The notes under the pieces are model-generated. The model was not told the origin of the DNA. It saw nothing but the letters and a program-made list of their open reading frames with translations, and made no database searches. A stretch of DNA of 55,062 nucleotides from Candidatus Dadabacteria bacterium. Its GTDB lineage: Bacteria; Desulfobacterota_D; UBA1144; Nemesobacterales; Nemesobacteraceae. Position numbers and translations under genes: made by a program. The stretch is from NCBI GenBank assembly GCA_009840385.1, contig VXNX01000011.1, positions 1 through 55,062 on the forward strand, given 5' to 3'. Below, piece by piece: positions 1 to 37,388 of this stretch (position 1 is the stretch's first letter; each line of letters opens with the position of its first letter).

Positions 1-18
1 ATTACTTTCTGAATACCT

Positions 19-162
19 TTGTCAACAACTGAAATCCTCTGCGATATAAATCGCTGCTGCGTAAGTCCTAAAACTAATGATGAAGATTCAAAAATAAAAG
101 AAATTGCTGTTAAGACTTCTGATAATTGTCAATTTTATTATAGGAGCAAGTTTTCCAAATGA
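19..162 (+). CDS. Possible short ORF or tail of an upstream gene, coupled to the methylase
   Basis: A reading frame is open from a stop at 10-12 to a TGA at 160-162. That TGA overlaps the methylase ATG as ATGA, the usual sign of translational coupling. The only candidate start is the TTG at 19, so the frame may instead be the remains of a gene beginning left of the window. The roughly 47 residues are charged and Cys-containing and I do not recognise them. The other frames here are short. Confidence 0.25.
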   Translation: MSTTEILCDINRCCVSPKTNDEDSKIKEIAVKTSDNCQFYYRSKFSK

Positions 163-2435
163 GTAACAAACAAATAGATTTCCTCCAGATCGGAGAGCAG
201 AAAGGTTATATTAAGATCTTTAACGAAGGGACAACAATTCACTATGTTGCTCCCGATAAGAAATATAAATTTACTGACCCTGAGGAACAGGTCCGAGCGC
301 GGTACTATGTTGAGTTGATTGAGCGGTATCAATATCCTGAAAATAGGATTGATCTGGAAGTGTCTGTTCCAGGGCGAACTCCGTACGTTTTCGCTGACGT
401 TGTGGTTTTCCGAGATAATGACAAGAAAGATCCGTTCATTGTCGTTGAGTGCAAAAAAGACGAAACTTCTGAAGCAGAATTCAGCCAGGCAGTTGACCAG
501 GCTTTTGGTAACTGTAACGCTTTACGTGGAGAATATACGGCTGTTATTGCAGGCAATACGCGACGTTTTTTTAATGTCAAAGATTTTGCACAAGGAGAAA
601 GGGATCAGAATGTCATCGCGGATATTCCGGTCAGATATGGTAAGATCCAGGAGTGGCGGTATAAAAAAGATGATGAAGATTGGGATATACAAGCAGTTGG
701 ACGGAGAGATCTTATCCGTGTTCTTGATAAATGCCACAATACACTTCGGAATTCAGGGCAACTTGCCCCAGCCGAGGCGTTTGATGAACTTTCTAAGATT
801 TTATTTATCAAACTTCGAGATGAAAAAAAACCGAGGCGGGCCGGTAATCCTTACAATTTCCAGATTAAAACGCATGAAACTCCGAATTCGGTTGCGGATC
901 GGATTAAAGTATTGTATCAGGAAGCAAAAGCGCAAGACCCAGAAGTCTTTACGAGAGAAATTGATATTGATGACAGAACGGTCTTTTCAGTCGTTAATCA
1001 CTTGCAAGGCATTAACCTCAACGCAACTGAGTTGGACGTGAAAGGACTTGCATTCGAGCGGTTCTTAGGAAGTTATTTCAGGGGTGATATGGGACAATAT
1101 TTCACACCACGTGAGTTAGTTGAGTTCATAATCAAAATGATTGAACCGCACCATGAGGAACGAATTCTTGACCCCGCGTGTGGATCGGGGGGTTTTTTGT
1201 TATATGCGATGGAGCACATCCAGAGACAGGCATCCGAATTTTACGATGAAGAAAGCCATGAACACCGTTCTCACTGGCACGATTTCGCCAGAGATAAGTT
1301 GTTTGGGATTGAAGTGAATGATGCAATCGCTCGCGTGGCCAAAATGAATATGATCCTCCATGATGATGGACATAGTAATGTCATTGGTAGCGATGCCCTC
1401 ATCGGCTTTAATAAAATTCATGACCAGCACAGAGATTTTGAAAAAGAGGAATTTGATATAATCCTTACCAATCCGCCCTTTGGTGCTGTGGTCAAAAAGG
1501 AAGAATCAGATTATCTTGATGATTACGAACTCGGAAAACGGAGAAATTCTCAAAAGACAGAAATTCTATTTCTTGAACGCTGCTTTGATTTTCTCAAGTG
1601 GGAAACAGGTAAACTCGCAATTATCTTGCCTGATGGGATTCTAAACAATTCGTCTTTGCAATATGTCCGGGATTATATTGAACAGCGGTTCAAAATTCTC
1701 GCTGTTGTTTCGCTGCCACGGTTTGCTTTCAAGTATTATGAGGCAGGTGTGAAACCCTCTATTCTATTGCTCCAAAAGTTTTCGGAAACGGAATATAGCC
1801 TCTATCAAGCCAATATAAACCGGATCACAGGGGAGAATGAGGCAGTTTATATCCCACGGGTTGAAGAACTTGAGGATGAGAAGAGCAAGGTTATTGGTGA
1901 GCGGGGCTGTCCCGCGCAAGTCGCAGTGACAGATCTCTATCAGCCCCAATTTCGAGGGATTTTGGATAACATTGAAGACCTGAATCGTAAATTGGGAAAA
2001 AGCCCAACACAAAAGTTTTTACGTTTGCGCGAGCGGTTTGTTCGGGACACACCACTCAAAGATTCATCAGAATTTGAACTTATCCACAAGAAATCGGCAA
2101 ATGCGCAACTTAAGACACAAAAAAAAGATCTCGATGTGCTGGAGAAGGAATACAAGACGGAATTTAAAGCGGCTGCTGACTCAGAATGGGAAAGCGAAAT
2201 CAAAGCGGAATACAAGGAAAAGATTGACACCATAAAAGAGGAGTTGGCAGATAAAAATGGGGAAGATATCCGCGAGTGGGTGCAAGAAAACGCCAATCAT
2301 CCCATCTTTATGGCAGTAGCTGAGCGTATCGGCTATGACGCAACAGGACGAAAGGACAGTGTTAACGACCTTGACATGATCTACGAGGAATATCGAAGGT
2401 TCATAAGCACGGAAGTCCTGGATTTTTTCGGGTAA
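159..2435 (+). CDS. hsdM: Nuclease-methylase subunit of a type I-like/BcgI-like restriction-modification system
   Basis: This 758-residue protein combines two activities. Residues about 35-140 resemble the HsdR N-terminal PD-(D/E)xK nuclease domain, with D80 in FADVVVF and E97-x-K99 in VVECKK as probable catalytic residues. Residues about 290-580 are an HsdM-type adenine-N6 methylase: the GQYFTP region at 312-317, the SAM-binding motif DPACGSGG at 338-345 and the catalytic NPPFG at 438-442. The C-terminus (about 650-730) is charged and probably coiled coil. It should methylate, and perhaps cut, DNA at sites chosen by the HsdS subunit encoded next. No HsdR helicase gene is visible, so the layout resembles BcgI (RM subunit plus S subunit) more than classical type I. 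GGAG lies 13 nt before the ATG. The last codons form a slippery run (see the frameshift signal). Confidence 0.88.
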   Translation: MSNKQIDFLQIGEQKGYIKIFNEGTTIHYVAPDKKYKFTDPEEQVRARYYVELIERYQYPENRIDLEVSVPGRTPYVFADVVVFRDNDKKDPFIVVECKKDETSEAEFSQAVDQAFGNCNALRGEYTAVIAGNTRRFFNVKDFAQGERDQNVIADIPVRYGKIQEWRYKKDDEDWDIQAVGRRDLIRVLDKCHNTLRNSGQLAPAEAFDELSKILFIKLRDEKKPRRAGNPYNFQIKTHETPNSVADRIKVLYQEAKAQDPEVFTREIDIDDRTVFSVVNHLQGINLNATELDVKGLAFERFLGSYFRGDMGQYFTPRELVEFIIKMIEPHHEERILDPACGSGGFLLYAMEHIQRQASEFYDEESHEHRSHWHDFARDKLFGIEVNDAIARVAKMNMILHDDGHSNVIGSDALIGFNKIHDQHRDFEKEEFDIILTNPPFGAVVKKEESDYLDDYELGKRRNSQKTEILFLERCFDFLKWETGKLAIILPDGILNNSSLQYVRDYIEQRFKILAVVSLPRFAFKYYEAGVKPSILLLQKFSETEYSLYQANINRITGENEAVYIPRVEELEDEKSKVIGERGCPAQVAVTDLYQPQFRGILDNIEDLNRKLGKSPTQKFLRLRERFVRDTPLKDSSEFELIHKKSANAQLKTQKKDLDVLEKEYKTEFKAAADSEWESEIKAEYKEKIDTIKEELADKNGEDIREWVQENANHPIFMAVAERIGYDATGRKDSVNDLDMIYEEYRRFISTEVLDFFG

Positions 2436-2476
2436 GCCCTGATAGGGAAAACCAAATTTTCCTCACCTATCGGGGC
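2423..2476 (+). promoter_or_regulatory. Candidate -1 ribosomal frameshift signal joining methylase and specificity subunit
   Basis: The heptamer T TTT TTC (2423-2429) sits in the methylase frame four nucleotides before its TAA (2433-2435), matching the X XXY YYZ slippery pattern. Six nucleotides after the heptamer begins an 11-bp stem, 2436-2446 with 2466-2476, containing one G-T wobble and a 19-nt loop. A -1 slip enters the HsdS frame at 2429 and gives a fused protein of about 1,235 residues. The HsdS frame is open from here but has no ATG, GTG or TTG before 2534. Alternatively the T-run carries an indel in a gene that is truly fused. Confidence 0.6.
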
Positions 2477-2533
2477 GAAACAATTAATCAGCGGATTGAT
2501 TCCTACTATTACCAACCAAAATTTAAGGCTATT

Positions 2534-3865
2534 ATGCAAACGGTGGGAAAGGTTCAATTTGATGTGATGAATTTGGGAACCTTAATAAGGGACCTTTCCA
2601 GTGGAGCCACACCAAAGGTTGATGAAAATTACTATACAGATGCCTCTGGTGTACCGTTTTTAAGAGTCCAAAATGTTACGGAATATGGAATTGATCTGAG
2701 TGATGCAAAATTTATCACGACAGAAGTACATAACAGTATGCTCAGACGGTCTAAACTTAAAAAGGACGATTTGGCATTTACAATAACAGGACGCATCGGA
2801 AGTGTTGCAGTTATACCTGATAACTTTGAGGGAAATATAAACCAGCATTCTGTTCGGTTTCAACTCAACTCCCAATTTGCAAACATCACTAGCCCACGTT
2901 ACATAGCTGCTTTTCTTAATTCAACTTTAGGTCGATCTTTGTCAATTCGAGAAATAACGGGTGGAACTCGCCCCGCACTTGATTATAAAGCCTTGCGTTC
3001 CCTCAAAGTTATCCTGCCAGCACTGAGCATCCAAAATGACATCATTGAGATTATGCAAGCCGCTTATACGGCAAAAAAGCAGAAGGATCAGGAGGCGGAC
3101 GCAATTTTAGATTCAATTGATGACTATATGCTGGCAGAGTTGGGCGTTGAGATACCAATCACTGAAGAAAAAAGGTGTTTTGTAGTTTATACTGGTGAAA
3201 CAGCGGGCAGGCGTATTGATTCCTTCTACTATCAAGAACACTATAAAGTTTTGCAAAATCTATTAAACGGCTTAGATAATGTAGAAAGTCTTATTGGTTT
3301 GTTGCAGTTAATAGGAAGCGGAATGCGTCCAGAAGGCGGAGTTGCCAATATAGAATCTGGCGTTTTAAGTTTCGGTGGTGAACATATAAATAATCAGTGC
3401 GAGATAGAAGTCAGCACGCCGAGATACGTTCCATGGGAATTCCATTATCTACATAACAAAACAGAAACGCAACTGAATGATCTCCTTTTAGTAAAAGATG
3501 GCGCGACTACCGGAAAAATTGGAATCGTCAGTAATCCAACACATATAGGACAGAATATAAATGAGCATCTGTTCTTACTGAGAACAAGGGATAATGTAAA
3601 CCCTGTCTACCTGCTTAACTTTTTGAATTCGTGTCTTGGTCAGTTACAAATACAAAGAGAGATAACCGGAGGTACAGTTACTGGGATAACAAAAGGTGTT
3701 GTGAGGAGATTAAAGATAATAATGCCTGACGAAGAAAAACAGACTGAAATTGTCAACCATATTACCGAAATTCGCGGCTATGCAAAACGTTTACAACAAG
3801 AAGGCGATGCCATTGTGGAAGAAGCGAAAGAGAGAGTCGAGCGGATTCTACTGTCGGAAGCGTAA
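2534..3865 (+). CDS. hsdS: Type I restriction specificity subunit
   Basis: HsdS chooses the DNA target for the methylase/nuclease complex. The protein has two half-repeats, each with a target-recognition domain starting near residues 12 and 250, containing the typical SGATPK-like turn, a 'DDLAFTITGRIGS' strand or its DLLLVKDGATTGK counterpart, and helical spacers near 165-205 and 405-440. From the ATG at 2534 it is 443 residues. However, the second half begins with FVVYTGETAGRRIDSFYYQ (216-234), and a close copy, FLTYRGETINQRIDSYYYQ, is encoded in the same frame just upstream of 2534 (about 2458-2520). The real protein therefore almost certainly begins earlier, most simply by frameshifting from the methylase. 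A shorter form could start at 2534, where AAGG lies 7 nt upstream. Confidence 0.85.
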   Translation: MQTVGKVQFDVMNLGTLIRDLSSGATPKVDENYYTDASGVPFLRVQNVTEYGIDLSDAKFITTEVHNSMLRRSKLKKDDLAFTITGRIGSVAVIPDNFEGNINQHSVRFQLNSQFANITSPRYIAAFLNSTLGRSLSIREITGGTRPALDYKALRSLKVILPALSIQNDIIEIMQAAYTAKKQKDQEADAILDSIDDYMLAELGVEIPITEEKRCFVVYTGETAGRRIDSFYYQEHYKVLQNLLNGLDNVESLIGLLQLIGSGMRPEGGVANIESGVLSFGGEHINNQCEIEVSTPRYVPWEFHYLHNKTETQLNDLLLVKDGATTGKIGIVSNPTHIGQNINEHLFLLRTRDNVNPVYLLNFLNSCLGQLQIQREITGGTVTGITKGVVRRLKIIMPDEEKQTEIVNHITEIRGYAKRLQQEGDAIVEEAKERVERILLSEA

Positions 3866-3965
3866 GGATATTTTGGATCATATCCCTTCTTGGGTGAATG
3901 GTGTATCTAAAACCGCAATTGAAGGTTTTAGCAATAGATTGATGGGACTGGTAGAAGGAGAGTAG
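3866..3965 (+). pseudogene. Possible transposase C-terminal remnant
   Basis: Directly after hsdS, another frame encodes a short stretch containing SWVNGVSKTAIEGFSNRL and then a stop at 3963-3965. The 'AIEGFSNRL' segment recalls the conserved C-terminal region of ISL3-type DDE transposases. The match is short and I would not rely on it. It fits the transposon debris that follows. Confidence 0.2.
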
Positions 3966-3979
3966 GTTGAACAGAATTT

Positions 3980-4493
3980 TTGTACTGCCACCGGAAATTC
4001 GGGCCACTCTCTAAACCAAGATTGTCGTTCTTGAGGCACTTAGCGGCGAAAGTTCACATCATCTATGTCGCTCTGCTCATGGATGTCTTCACCCGAATGA
4101 TCAAAGCCTGGAGAACCTCTGAGTTAGCACTTGAACCAATCTCTGATGCTCAAACCGCTCCAAGAAGCGTTGGGTTTCCAAAGCGTTCCAGAGATCCACC
4201 ACTCTGATCAAGGCGTGCAGTATCTTTCAAGTGCTTATATCTCGACTCTCAGGTGTCATGGGATTGAGGTTTCATTAGCACACAGAGGAGACCGTCCTTG
4301 GGAGAATGGTTATGCTGAACGCCTCATCCGAACTCTCAAGGAGGCAGAAGTTCATCTCAACGACTATCAGAACATCCATGAAGCGAGAGATCGTATCGGT
4401 CATTTTATCACACAGGTGTATCACCAAAAACGCCCGCATTCGGCGTTAGGGGATCTGACACCTATGGAATTTCAAAGACAAACCTTCTCTTAA
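3980..4493 (+). pseudogene. IS3-family transposase (OrfB) remnant with frameshift
   Basis: Two frames together encode the C-terminal integrase core of an IS3-type transposase. The first (to about 4125) contains the first catalytic Asp in YVALLMDVFTRMIKAW. The second (from about 4131) contains HHSDQGVQYLS with the second Asp, and ENGYAERLIRTLKEAEV with the Glu, followed by the family ending 'QKRPHSALGDLTPMEF'. A one-base frameshift lies near 4110-4130. The N-terminal half and OrfA are missing, so the copy is dead. It separates the restriction system from the next two genes and may have truncated the 3' end of the minus-strand gene beginning at 5115. Confidence 0.85.
3982..4012. repeat. Copy of a transposon-end-like repeat
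   Basis: The segment starting GTACTGCCACCGGAAATT is a diverged direct copy of the left arm of the hairpin at 5844-5893, including the following CACT-CTCT bases. It may be an end of a small mobile element or of the degraded IS beside it. Confidence 0.5.
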
Positions 4494-4527
4494 CTTTGCG
4501 AAATTGTGGTCTGAATAAACGTTGGCA

Positions 4528-5115
4528 CTACATGTCATTGCTTTCTGAAGATCTCATAATGGATGCCGATTCAATGTAGTGATTATCCATCAATTCTTCG
4601 TACTCTCTGCTAATAAAATAAAAACGTGCCTGCTCATCCTGAGGCATTTGTTCTACATCCTCACCAGATATATGACGAAGATCTACTGCCTGATTTCTGC
4701 ATAGCACTATAAGTCTGATTATACATAATTGTCTCCACGATAATGACTCTATTACTTTAAAATATGAAAAAGCAGTTGCTTCATCTATATTAGAATTAGA
4801 TGTACCACAAACATTTACCCAGAATTTAGCAATGTGCACACTTTTTCTTTCCTGAGAGTCGTTGATAATCTCTTTTATGGTTTTCTCCAATAATTGAAGT
4901 GGAATGTGACGATTAGATACTTCATTTTCAGCGAACCAATCATTTCTCCATGTGTCGCCTTGAGCGACTTTTTCGTCCATATATTTTGACATCAACTTCA
5001 CACTACGTTCAACACGCTCTTTTACACACCTCATAAGGTAGTTAAAAGTCAATTTAGCCGTTTGGGTAGCAATTACCTTTGGTAATTCTTCCGAAACCAA
5101 TTTTTCCATATCCAC
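4528..5115 (-). CDS. Hypothetical protein, helical, in defence island
   Basis: A 195-residue protein I do not recognise. It looks mostly helical, with a central hydrophobic stretch (LCIIRLIVLC, about residues 132-141) and a charged N-terminal half resembling stress- or defence-island proteins of unknown function. Its stop lies close to the end of the IS3 remnant and the last residues are low-complexity (SIMRSSESND), so the C-terminus may have been replaced when the transposon arrived. An AGGAG-like sequence precedes the start at 5115. It is transcribed away from the TIGR02391 gene's end, with about 80 nt between them, probably as one minus-strand unit. Confidence 0.6.
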   Translation of the reverse strand: MDMEKLVSEELPKVIATQTAKLTFNYLMRCVKERVERSVKLMSKYMDEKVAQGDTWRNDWFAENEVSNRHIPLQLLEKTIKEIINDSQERKSVHIAKFWVNVCGTSNSNIDEATAFSYFKVIESLSWRQLCIIRLIVLCRNQAVDLRHISGEDVEQMPQDEQARFYFISREYEELMDNHYIESASIMRSSESNDM

Positions 5116-5196
5116 TATTATTACTCCTTTTCAGATTTGGTTTGTGGTTCACAACTAATAATATTGTAGTGATTCATGGCAAAACCTGCATTTACG

Positions 5197-5802
5197 CTAA
5201 CTCACCTCAGGCTGATTACGGAAATCAACTATCCGAAGAAGATGTCCTGCCAAAATTATCACTTCAACTGCTTCTTCCGCGGTAAATTCTGCATTTCGGT
5301 GACTACTGGGGTTTTTATATGCCCCGATCCCACCTGCAAACAGGTCTGATCGTGCTTGTCTTTCTGTGGGGGGTTGATTTAAGTCAGTTAACTTACCTCT
5401 GTCGACATGGAACGCCTTACGCATTAGGTCAGTTCCGTAGTCTGTTGCCTCATAGCCTCCTGCCTCTCGGACGGCGATTTCAACCTGTTTGAATGCCTGA
5501 AAAACAGCAGTATCGTAATCACCTTGAAAAAAAATAGGTAAAACCTTTTGTTGTAATATAGGGTGATTAGGTATCAGCTTAGCTTCTAAAACTTTAGGAG
5601 TTTCAGTTGACGTATCACCATATGGAACAGATATTTTTTGATGAAATGACCCACCTGGAAGATTTATATGTTGCCAACGAACTGTTTCACCGTTTTTGAT
5701 GCTCCATGCAGACCACCAAAGCGATCGAATTTCATCGTCTTCTGTAGTGGAATATTTGTTTGTATGAACTTGAGCAATTATCGCTCTTTTTTCATTACTC
5801 AT
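5197..5802 (-). CDS. TIGR02391-family protein
   Basis: The 201-residue protein carries the C-terminal signature of the TIGR02391 (Ymh-type) family: AVFQAFKQVEIAVREAGG, then LMRKAF, ERQARSDLFAGGIGAYKNPSSHR and ILAGHLLRIVD (about residues 100-195). The KNPSSHR element is the most conserved part. The biochemical role of this family is not established. Members are common next to restriction systems and other defence genes, as here. The N-terminal 90 residues are not recognisable. A weak GGAAA lies before the start at 5802. It is the upstream member of a likely two-gene minus-strand operon. Confidence 0.75.
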   Translation of the reverse strand: MSNEKRAIIAQVHTNKYSTTEDDEIRSLWWSAWSIKNGETVRWQHINLPGGSFHQKISVPYGDTSTETPKVLEAKLIPNHPILQQKVLPIFFQGDYDTAVFQAFKQVEIAVREAGGYEATDYGTDLMRKAFHVDRGKLTDLNQPPTERQARSDLFAGGIGAYKNPSSHRNAEFTAEEAVEVIILAGHLLRIVDFRNQPEVS

Positions 5803-5843
5803 TTACTTTCCTCTATCATAGGGTTTGAGTTGAAAGTGTTTCT

Positions 5844-5893
5844 GTACTGCCATCGGAAATTTGGGGCACTGTCTCAATTTCCGATGGCAGTAC
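5844..5893. repeat. Perfect 18-bp inverted repeat (hairpin)
   Basis: GTACTGCCATCGGAAATT (5844-5861) and its exact reverse complement (5876-5893) flank a 14-nt loop. The left arm and loop recur, diverged, at 3982-4012. The hairpin lies just upstream of the two minus-strand defence-type genes and could be a MITE, an element end or a terminator for the gene at 5904-6128. Confidence 0.75.
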
Positions 5894-5903
5894 GTTTCCA
5901 GGG

Positions 5904-6128
5904 TTATGAATCTAAAATATTTCCCTTGTCTGTGTTCAAGAACTTGTGGCAGAAGTGTCTTGGCCACGGTTTGCCCAGTTTCTCAAAGAAAACTTTAGAT
6001 TTCCGGCCTGAGGGATGTTCTTTCTTGTAGTAAAACACCTTCTCGCCACAGTAGCGACAATGAGTCGGATAGGTTATAGATTTCGGGTCGTTAAAGCCGT
6101 TTCTTTTCTTGAATTTGTTGTAAAGCAT
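5904..6128 (-). CDS. Small zinc-binding-type protein
   Basis: The start at 6128 is chosen because GGAGG lies 5 nt upstream, giving 74 residues. It contains HCRYCGEKVFYYKKEH near residues 22-37 and a later RHFCHKF, i.e. a CxxC pair and a further Cys/His set spaced like a zinc ribbon or HNH-like knuckle. The rest is basic. It could bind nucleic acid, but I recognise no named family. A 7-bp hairpin is found in its leader. The 3' end approaches the inverted repeat at 5844-5893, which could serve as its terminator. Confidence 0.6.
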   Translation of the reverse strand: MLYNKFKKRNGFNDPKSITYPTHCRYCGEKVFYYKKEHPSGRKSKVFFEKLGKPWPRHFCHKFLNTDKGNILDS

Positions 6129-14119: not shown

Positions 14120-14872
14120 ATGGGCTACATCTATAAAATCACCAATACTATCAACGATAAATCTTACATTGGCATCTCCATCCATCCGCCTGGAAAAGGT
14201 AGAATAAGAAACCATCTTTCGGGGTATGGCAACTGTATCATTTCCAACGCTGTGAAAAAGTATGGTAGAGACGCATTCACGTATGAAATCCTTGAGAACA
14301 ATATCTTCCCTGAACTCTTGCCTGATCTTGAGATAGCGTATATCAAGAAGTATCAAACCATTACCCCTTTGGGTTATAACCTGACACATGGGGGTGAGGG
14401 CACACTTGGCTATAGATTTTCTGCTGAACAACGACGCAGACTTTCTGAAACCCGTAAGGGAGAAAAAAATAGTTTTTTTGGTAAAAAGCACTCTCCTGAA
14501 ACTCGCCTCAAAATCGGAGAAGCCGGTAAAGGGAGAAAGCATACCACTGAAACCCGCCTCAAAATCGGAGAAGCCGGTAAAGGGAGAAAGCATACCACTG
14601 AAACTCGTCGGCGAATATCTGAAGCACAAAAAGGGAAATCCTCACCCAATAAAGGGAAAACACGTTCTGCCAAAACATGTGGGAAAATATCCAAAACAAA
14701 AGGGAAGGCATTTGAAAAACGTTTGGGAATGCCTCTCCTTGCCTTTCATATCAGAATAAATTTGTTCTTGCGAGCGCGGTGGTCATTTCGCCGTATTGCA
14801 AAAGGGCTTAGAATACCTTCCTCGACTGTTCACAAATACAAAGACATCGCCTCACTTCTTAAAAAGACCTAA
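14120..14872 (+). CDS. GIY-YIG homing endonuclease with NUMOD3 repeats
   Basis: The 250-residue protein opens with the GIY-YIG nuclease domain: GYIYKITNTINDKSYIG (residues 2-18), a probable catalytic Arg in GKGRIRNHL and Glu in FTYEIL near 55-60. Residues about 95-200 hold NUMOD3-type DNA-binding repeats (SAEQRRRLSETRKGEKNSFF, HSPETRLKIGEAGKGRKH), two of them almost identical at the DNA level. A helix-turn-helix-like end follows (WSFRRIAKGLRIPSSTVHKY). Such enzymes cut allelic sites so that their own gene is copied in. It lies alone on the plus strand in a minus-strand region with its own promoter, leader and terminator. Confidence 0.88.
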   Translation: MGYIYKITNTINDKSYIGISIHPPGKGRIRNHLSGYGNCIISNAVKKYGRDAFTYEILENNIFPELLPDLEIAYIKKYQTITPLGYNLTHGGEGTLGYRFSAEQRRRLSETRKGEKNSFFGKKHSPETRLKIGEAGKGRKHTTETRLKIGEAGKGRKHTTETRRRISEAQKGKSSPNKGKTRSAKTCGKISKTKGKAFEKRLGMPLLAFHIRINLFLRARWSFRRIAKGLRIPSSTVHKYKDIASLLKKT

Positions 14873-36437: not shown

Positions 36438-37388
36438 TCACTTGGAAACGTGAGGGGCATATTTTCGGATTGTATTTTGGCTTTTCCGAAGTTCACGCGT
36501 TATCTTGGTTTTAGACCAGCCGGCGCGCAACAACCAGTCGATAAGGATTGTGAGTGCCTCTGGGCTCATGCCAAGTTTGACTTTAGAGTTTTTCCGACGG
36601 GTTTCTTCTGAATGTTTTCTGCCTTTATTGGCTCTTGATATTTTCTGTTTGGTTTCTTCTGAATGAGGTTTACCTTTATTCCACGCAGGGTTGCCTTTGA
36701 GTGCCTCAGACATCTTCTGTTTGGCTTCCTCTGAATGAGGTTTACCTTTATTCCATGCGGGTTTGCCCTTCAGTGCCTTAGATATTTTCTGACGAACTTC
36801 AGGGCGTTTTGTTGGGCTGTTTTCACCAGATATTTTCTGACGAACTTCAGGGCGTTTCATTGCGTTGTTTTCTGAAATTCTCCGGAGAGTTTCTTCTGAA
36901 TGGGATTTGCCATAGTTAGGATTTTTTTTACCTGCGGTGACTTCAGATATTTTCTGACGAGTTTCTTCTGAATGCGTTTTGCCTATGTTTGCTTCAGAAA
37001 GTTTCCGACGGGTTCCTTCTGAATGGGGTTTACCTTTATTCCATGCGGGTTTGCCCTTCAGTGCCTCAGACATCTTCTGACGAGTTTCTTCTGAATGCGA
37101 ACAGACACCGCCACCGCCTCTGTTCTGATTATAGCCATATGGTTTCATGGTATTGTGTTTCGCAATCTCTTCCCGCTCAAGGGTATCCAAGAATTCAGGG
37201 ATGATACCATCATGGAGGATCTCAAACGTAAAAACATCTTCTCCGTATTTGTCAATATCGTCCTTAAGGGGTTTATTGCCCCTGCCACTCAGATGATTGC
37301 GTTTTCGAGTTTTCTCGGCATCATGGACAGTTTTACCGATGTATGCCATACCGCTGAGAGTGTTCGTAATTTTATAGATGGATCCCAT
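36438..37388 (-). CDS. Second GIY-YIG homing endonuclease with many NUMOD3 repeats
   Basis: 316 residues. The GIY-YIG domain is at 1-95 (GSIYKITNTLSGMAYIGKTV, and FEILHDGIIPEFLDTLEREE). At least eight NUMOD3-type repeats follow (HSEETRQKMSEALKGKPAWN and variants), several identical at DNA level. The C-terminus is helix-turn-helix-like (LLRAGWSKTKITRELRKSQN). It lies antisense between tail tube and tail chaperone genes, a classic site for an invading homing gene. It shares its N-terminus with the copy at 14120 but is clearly diverged. Confidence 0.87.
   Translation of the reverse strand: MGSIYKITNTLSGMAYIGKTVHDAEKTRKRNHLSGRGNKPLKDDIDKYGEDVFTFEILHDGIIPEFLDTLEREEIAKHNTMKPYGYNQNRGGGGVCSHSEETRQKMSEALKGKPAWNKGKPHSEGTRRKLSEANIGKTHSEETRQKISEVTAGKKNPNYGKSHSEETLRRISENNAMKRPEVRQKISGENSPTKRPEVRQKISKALKGKPAWNKGKPHSEEAKQKMSEALKGNPAWNKGKPHSEETKQKISRANKGRKHSEETRRKNSKVKLGMSPEALTILIDWLLRAGWSKTKITRELRKSQNTIRKYAPHVSK

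What the first reader, a model, noticed from the sequence alone, without database searches (positions are those of the whole stretch)
2423..2476. Programmed -1 frameshift may fuse methylase-nuclease and specificity subunit
A perfect T TTT TTC heptamer in the right phase lies 4 nt before the methylase stop. An 11-bp stem begins 6 nt after it. The HsdS frame has no usual start codon before a conserved half-repeat segment, and that segment is demonstrably part of HsdS because a near copy lies in the second half of the protein. A slip would make one 1,235-residue nuclease-methylase-specificity protein alongside the free nuclease-methylase. This would set the ratio of free RM subunit to fused RMS, a control I do not know in restriction systems.
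Basis: partly seen in the sequence, partly recalled or inferred. Interest (0 to 1): 0.78.

Follow-up and report, generated by a model that had tools for sequence, protein, structure and literature searches.

The report
Ribosomal frameshift fuses restriction enzyme subunits
A short RNA signal (slippery T-run plus hairpin) at the end of a restriction enzyme's nuclease-methylase gene very probably makes some ribosomes slip back one base and add the DNA-recognition subunit, and this signal is conserved in relatives of the enzyme from at least 16 bacterial phyla, although no report of it was found.

Summary
Window 2423-2429 is a canonical in-phase heptamer (T TTT TTC), 3 nt before the RM stop. A GC-rich hairpin (11 outer bp) starts exactly 6 nt after it. 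The HsdS frame is -1, with no ATG/GTG/TTG before a conserved half-repeat.

Homologues support it strongly. Of about 90 related loci, 56 have a canonical heptamer in phase with S in -1, and in the 55 examined in detail the stem begins 6 nt downstream. They come from at least 16 named phyla. The stem covaries (49 two-sided changes; shuffles 18.8 +/- 2.9). The wobble base before the Phe codons is T in 54 of 56 loci, across five amino acids (about 11 expected). Hairpin z averages -4.2, against 0.0 in 16 homologues with an ordinary S start. One relative (L006) is fused in frame 0 and keeps heptamer and stem; there a -1 slip would end translation at once.

Best explanation: programmed -1 ribosomal frameshifting makes free RM plus an RM-S fusion, fitting the (RM)2S build of BsaXI and BcgI and the need of a laboratory EcoKI M-S fusion for extra free M. 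Frameshifting itself is inferred; the 2:1 assembly idea is less certain. No earlier report was found in the library searched.

The parts
159..2435 (+). RM gene (758 aa): N-terminal HSDR_N nuclease domain and N6 adenine methyltransferase, ending ...DFFG*; zero-frame product
   Evidence: Pfam HSDR_N_2 (residues 41-157) and N6_Mtase (293-544); D80, E97, K99 and methylase motifs DPACGSGG and NPPFG invariant in four homologues
2423..2429 (+). Slippery heptamer T TTT TTC in the X XXY YYZ phase of the RM frame
   Evidence: Sequence; canonical in-phase heptamer in 56 loci
2430..2435 (+). 6-nt spacer GGG TAA holding the zero-frame stop (2433-2435)
   Evidence: Stem starts 6 nt after the heptamer in all 55 detailed loci; stop 3 nt after the heptamer in 52 of them
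2436..2476 (+). Stimulatory hairpin: outer stem 2436-2446/2466-2476, inner stem 2447-2451/2457-2461
   Evidence: Fold and z-score; covariation of the outer 8 bp; covariance model R1 61.7 bits
2375..3865 (+). HsdS frame (-1 relative to RM), two specificity half-repeats; reached by slippage at 2423-2429, with no usual start before the conserved segment
   Evidence: Stop-to-stop ORF; Methylase_S; half-repeat alignment

Best explanation
The junction is a programmed -1 ribosomal frameshift signal. Ribosomes reading the RM gene pause at the hairpin with TTT TTC in their P and A sites. A fraction slip back one base and continue in the S frame, making a single RM-S protein (1,235 aa here); the others stop one codon later and release free RM. 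Shown: heptamer, phase, fixed 6-nt spacer, covarying hairpin, missing S start and broad conservation. Inferred from the known physics of such signals: slippage by the ribosome. Inferred with less certainty (about 55%): the purpose is to make RM and RM-S from one message so that they assemble as RM + RM-S, equivalent to the (RM)2S trimer of Type IIB enzymes, with S never made in excess or alone.
For: 55 loci folded from the heptamer (plus L063, recognised later) have an in-phase heptamer with S in -1 and a GC stem exactly 6 nt on; counting L006 in place of L063 the heptamers are 45 TTTTTTC, 8 TTTTTTT, 2 CCCTTTT, 1 TTTTTTA. The outer stem is 94.2% paired against 82.5% in shuffles, with 49 two-sided changes against 18.8; pair 1 is GC in 32, CG in 19 and unpaired in 1, its 3' base being a synonymous Gly wobble position. 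The wobble base before TTT TTY is T in 54 of 56 loci across D, P, R, S and L codons, about 11 expected; the two exceptions are canonical C CCT TTT. Hairpin z mean is -4.2 against 0.0 in 16 start-codon homologues. 19 of 55 loci have no ATG/GTG/TTG in the S frame before the conserved motif. Model R1 hits only junctions: 3 of 387 genomes and, apart from one antisense hit at E=0.84, only junctions among 91 loci. L006 is fused in frame 0 but keeps heptamer, spacer and stem, its -1 frame stopping at CGT TAA. Stoichiometry: the nearest solved structure is RM.BsaXI, an (RM)2S enzyme (PMC11997821, PMC9159934); an EcoKI M-S fusion needed added HsdM in vitro (PMC3510504).
Against: No protein or ribosome data. 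No strong internal Shine-Dalgarno upstream (mean duplex energy -4.4 against -3.3 kcal/mol in control stretches). Some Clostridia-related loci have an ATG or GTG overlapping the RM stop in the S frame (L056, L061, L064, L066, L069, L071, L082, L114), so S could also be started there. The 3' arm encodes a conserved Arg-Gly-Glu motif, so part of its conservation is protein constraint.
Confidence: 0.88

Rival explanations
1. Programmed transcriptional realignment: RNA polymerase slips on the T-run and adds one base, so a fraction of mRNAs encode the fusion in frame.
For: A homopolymer is present, and -1 translation equals a one-base insertion in the message.
Against: Runs are six Ts in most loci and only four or five in the two CCCTTTT loci; longer runs are usually needed (PMC3711429 cites Tn, n>8). 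The fixed 6-nt spacer and covarying stem are ribosomal-frameshift geometry. CCCTTTT keeps the X XXY YYZ pattern rather than a long run.
Confidence: 0.05
2. Ordinary translational coupling: S is started separately at or near the RM stop, as in EcoKI, and heptamer and stem only help reinitiation.
For: EcoKI hsdM and hsdS overlap and are coupled (PMC3510504). Some Clostridia-related loci have ATGA or GTGA at the stop.
Against: In the window and in 19 of 55 loci there is no ATG/GTG/TTG in the S frame before the conserved N-terminal motif (the window is one of those loci). Homologues that do use a start codon lack heptamer and hairpin. Coupling does not explain wobble constraint on the heptamer.
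Confidence: 0.05
3. Phase variation, decayed gene or sequencing error at the T-run.
For: Homopolymers at restriction genes are known phase-variation sites.
Against: The run does not vary towards in-frame lengths among homologues. Complete and isolate genomes (Balneolaceae CP030887, Spirosoma terrae, Novosphingobium mangrovi, Chlorogloea CCALA 695, Ciceribacter sichuanensis) carry the same junction. Both domains stay open and conserved, and the hairpin covaries.
Confidence: 0.02

Closest known systems
Canonical -1 programmed ribosomal frameshift signals (HIV-1 gag-pol U UUU UUA, dnaX, insertion-sequence transposases)
   Same: X XXY YYZ heptamer, short spacer, downstream stem-loop, two proteins sharing an N-terminus.
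   Different: Host gene is a restriction-modification enzyme; spacer fixed at 6 nt with the zero-frame stop inside it; no strong internal Shine-Dalgarno; frameshift not yet shown by experiment.
Type IIB restriction enzymes BsaXI and BcgI, (RM)2S
   Same: RM subunit with N-terminal PD-(D/E)xK-like nuclease and N6 methylase, plus a two-TRD S subunit; RM.BsaXI is the best PDB match.
   Different: BsaXI RM and S were cloned and expressed as separate genes (PMC9159934); here S is in the -1 frame with no start and would be made as an RM-S fusion.
EcoKI HsdM-HsdS laboratory fusion (PMC3510504)
   Same: M joined to S at the gene border; needs extra free M to be active in vitro.
   Different: Made by removing the reading-frame break; here one gene pair would supply both fusion and free RM by frameshifting.
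CR.NsoJS138I C-REase fusion (PMC3850674)
   Same: A -1 frameshift at a fusion junction was considered there for a restriction system.
   Different: The authors tested for it and saw no frameshift product in E. coli; a different gene pair (regulator and nuclease).
MADS defence proteins MAD2 and MAD5
   Same: NCBIfam relatives of the RM (E 3e-91) and S (E 1e-26).
   Different: Both far below the curated cut-offs (306.6 of 720 bits; 93.6 of 400 bits).

Membership tests
-1 programmed ribosomal frameshift signal | X XXY YYZ heptamer in the zero-frame phase | tested here: met
   T TTT TTC at 2423-2429; in-phase canonical heptamer in 56 loci
-1 programmed ribosomal frameshift signal | Stable RNA structure about 5-9 nt downstream, conserved by covariation | tested here: met
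   6 nt spacer; z -3.6 in window; covariation
-1 programmed ribosomal frameshift signal | -1 frame stays open and encodes a conserved domain with no independent start | tested here: met
   S frame with Methylase_S; first start at 2534, after the half-repeat
-1 programmed ribosomal frameshift signal | Frameshift product observed | not testable with these tools
   Needs a reporter, mass spectrometry or ribosome profiling
Type IIB restriction-modification enzyme (BcgI/BsaXI) | One RM polypeptide with nuclease and N6 methylase, plus a two-TRD S subunit | tested here: met
   Pfam HSDR_N_2, N6_Mtase; Methylase_S with two stretches; D80, E97, K99 invariant in four homologues
Type IIB restriction-modification enzyme (BcgI/BsaXI) | No separate ATP-dependent HsdR | tested here: inconclusive
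   No HsdR recognised among the ORFs near the window locus (by eye) or among 10 flanking ORFs scanned in 10 homologous loci; whole genomes not searched for it
Type IIB restriction-modification enzyme (BcgI/BsaXI) | (RM)2S assembly and cleavage on both sides of the site | not testable with these tools
   Biochemistry needed
MADS (MAD2/MAD5) | NCBIfam equivalog cut-offs for MAD2 and MAD5 | tested here: not met
   306.6 of 720 bits and 93.6 of 400 bits
Phase-variable restriction gene | Homopolymer whose length varies so that the frame opens and closes | tested here: not met
   T6-T7 with the S frame always -1 across the frameshift loci; variation within one population not tested

The most novel reading that the evidence does not exclude
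A widespread class of restriction enzymes uses a frameshift signal to build an asymmetric RM + RM-S enzyme: one RM is covalently joined to S and the other is free, giving the 2:1 (RM)2S ratio from one message and preventing free S. If slippage depends on physiology, restriction activity would be set at translation. The inverse wiring in L006 (frame 0 makes the fusion, the slip makes RM) would show selection on keeping both products.
Probability: 0.45. Interest if true: 0.88.

Novelty: new variant of a known kind. Interest (0 to 1): 0.82.

Why it matters
It would be a deeply conserved cellular use of -1 frameshifting, in a defence enzyme, across at least 16 bacterial phyla. It gives a simple, testable account of how a (RM)2S enzyme can be made at a fixed ratio, and of how single-chain RM-S enzymes and split Type I/IIB systems can interconvert in evolution. 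It also means gene finders may truncate S by missing its N-terminus, or call the pair broken, so the number of working systems may be underestimated.

Tried and rejected
Viral-contig scan with the window protein alone: no relative. Plasmids and phages: only distant relatives, under 60% identity. E. coli genomes by DNA: no match. Rfam on window 1-6000: nothing credible. Internal Shine-Dalgarno as stimulator: mean duplex energy slightly lower than control, but no excess of strong sites. GeneTack 2013 (PMC3711429): no restriction, methylase or specificity cluster named in the main text; its supplements were not available. Sharma et al. 2011 not held. PRFect (PMC10885494): no mention of restriction. 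Structure prediction not used: the fusion exceeds the length limit and the half-repeat alignment already answered the question.

Full report
Observation. The RM ORF (159-2435) ends GAT TTT TTC GGG TAA. The heptamer T TTT TTC (2423-2429) is in the phase needed for a -1 slip. The S frame is -1, open from 2375 to 3865, with its first ATG/GTG/TTG at 2534. The hairpin 2436-2476 starts 6 nt after the heptamer (MFE -21.0 kcal/mol, z -3.6). The S segment before 2534 is real protein: it aligns with the second half-repeat of S (score 83, shuffle maximum 43).

Relatives. A search of 195 genomes gave the first comparisons: L004, from another phylum at about 53% identity, has CCTTTTTTCGTCTAAGCCC with a matching stem; L005 has C CCT TTT TAG with a stem; L006 is fused in one frame yet keeps heptamer and stem; L007 has an ordinary ATG for S. 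A scan of GTDB contigs with the four-protein alignment gave 80 loci, and IMG/VR gave 7. A junction table over these loci shows the same arrangement in Poribacteria, Bacillota, Pseudomonadota, Bacteroidota, Cyanobacteriota, Chloroflexota, Thermodesulfobacteriota, Spirochaetota, Thermotogota, Armatimonadota, Myxococcota, Chlorobiota, Lentisphaerota, Balneolota, Acidobacteriota and Planctomycetota.

Structure. In all 55 frameshift loci folded from the heptamer, a GC-rich stem begins exactly 6 nt after it; in 52 the zero-frame stop lies inside that spacer, 3 nt after the heptamer. A further locus, L063, was recognised later. The 3' arm was anchored by protein alignment, independently of pairing: complementarity to the own 5' arm is 0.83, against 0.70 +/- 0.014 when arms are shuffled between loci, none of 2000 shuffles as high. 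On a MAFFT alignment of 52 loci the 8 outer pairs are 94.2% paired (shuffles 82.5%), with 49 two-sided changes (shuffles 18.8 +/- 2.9) and covariation score 0.392 (shuffles 0.204); sliding the partner by 1 to 3 columns destroys it. RNAalifold finds the same helix on its own. The alignment includes close relatives, so shuffles overstate significance, but the G-C/C-G swap at pair 1 occurs in separate clades of the tree.

Codon-level constraint. In 54 of 56 loci the codon before the Phe codons ends in T and the first Phe is TTT, whatever the amino acid (Pro, Asp, Arg, Ser, Leu), including genes with GC3 up to 0.80; codon usage predicts about 11. The two exceptions are C CCT TTT, another canonical heptamer. 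In 13 loci (12 Poribacteria plus the window) synonymous divergence is 0.15 in the first 18 S codons, against 0.34 upstream and 0.38 in the next 12.

Controls. Sixteen homologues with S from an ordinary start lack a slippery T or C/T heptamer next to the RM stop; their mean hairpin z at the same place is 0.0 against -4.2 in frameshift loci. On a maximum-likelihood tree frameshift and start types need only 3 changes. The covariance model R1 hit 3 of 387 genomes of the broad sample, each at an RM/S junction, and in 91 loci it hit only junctions apart from one antisense hit at E=0.84.

Inverse case. In L006 the zero frame runs straight from RM into S (GAT TTT TTC GTT AAG GCC CCG...), while the -1 frame reads TTT TTT CGT TAA. 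Heptamer, 6-nt spacer and stem are kept. A base-calling error in the loop could not recreate the usual arrangement, because the -1 frame closes right after the heptamer. If both products are made there, slippage would make the free RM. This is one metagenomic contig; no second case was found in 43 genomes of the order.

Mechanism and purpose. Ribosomal slippage follows from the anatomy. RM-S as the functional partner of free RM is inference from known relatives: the best solved match is RM.BsaXI, a Type IIB enzyme built as (RM)2S (PMC11997821; PMC9159934), and an engineered EcoKI M-S fusion needed extra HsdM to cut DNA in vitro (PMC3510504). A frameshift near 50% would supply RM and RM-S in equal amounts, the same stoichiometry. 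Catalytic residues D80, E97, K99 and the methylase motifs are invariant in the four first homologues, so the enzyme looks active.

Novelty. Frameshift signals, Type IIB-like enzymes and M-S fusions are each known. Ten full-text searches of the held library found no report of programmed frameshifting at an RM/S or M/S junction; subscription papers, GeneTack supplements and Sharma et al. 2011 could not be read. One paper considered frameshifting at a C-REase fusion and saw no product (PMC3850674).

Limits. No expression data. Taxonomic breadth comes partly from metagenome bins. Clostridia-related loci with ATG or GTG at the stop may use both routes. The window's own contig may be in the wrong bin (see passing notes), which does not affect the junction.

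Noticed in passing
L150:4509, L133:1963, L139:2135 and about three dozen other IMG/VR contigs among L126-L173: The same cassette (TTTTTTC + one codon + stop + GCCC hairpin) joins a Mu-type portal gene to a MuF-like gene in the -1 frame; Pfam Portal_Mu confirmed in three and Phage_Mu_F in two. It looks like a second, unrelated user of the signal, in phage head genes.
   Followed up: partly
L006:3090-3135: Relative in which RM and S are fused in frame 0 while heptamer and hairpin are kept and a -1 slip meets a stop at once: an inverted version of the switch.
   Followed up: partly
Downstream of S in L054, L058, L064, L066, L069, L085, L091, L092, L094, L096, L112: A conserved gene of about 500-560 aa overlapping or next to the S end, with weak DGQHR/DndB similarity in the N-terminal half and weak nucleoside-deoxyribosyltransferase or TIR-like similarity; no family above cut-off, no PDB match.
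   Followed up: partly
window 1-55062: The contig may be mis-binned: tetranucleotide profile of 1-15 kb correlates 0.92 with Poribacteria loci and 0.59 with another contig of the same assembly, and the RM's nearest relatives are all Poribacteria. It also carries phage genes: terminase, portal, major head protein, tape measure.
   Followed up: partly
window 4131-4493: Transposase fragment (phrog_157) just downstream of the S gene.
   Followed up: no
window 14120-14872 (+) and 36438-37388 (-): Two ORFs beginning MGYIYKITN / MGSIYKITN with repeated HSEETRQKISEA-type segments, resembling GIY-YIG homing endonucleases (by eye only).
   Followed up: no
L056, L061, L069, L071, L114 (ATGA) and L064, L066, L082 (GTGA): Clostridia-related loci whose S frame has a start codon overlapping the RM stop while heptamer and stem are kept, so S might be made both ways.
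   Followed up: no
L178:3680-3720 (Winogradskyella phage Peternella_1): Portal/MuF junction with an A-run instead of a T-run; the annotated MuF start leaves out about 30 codons that look like its N-terminus.
   Followed up: no
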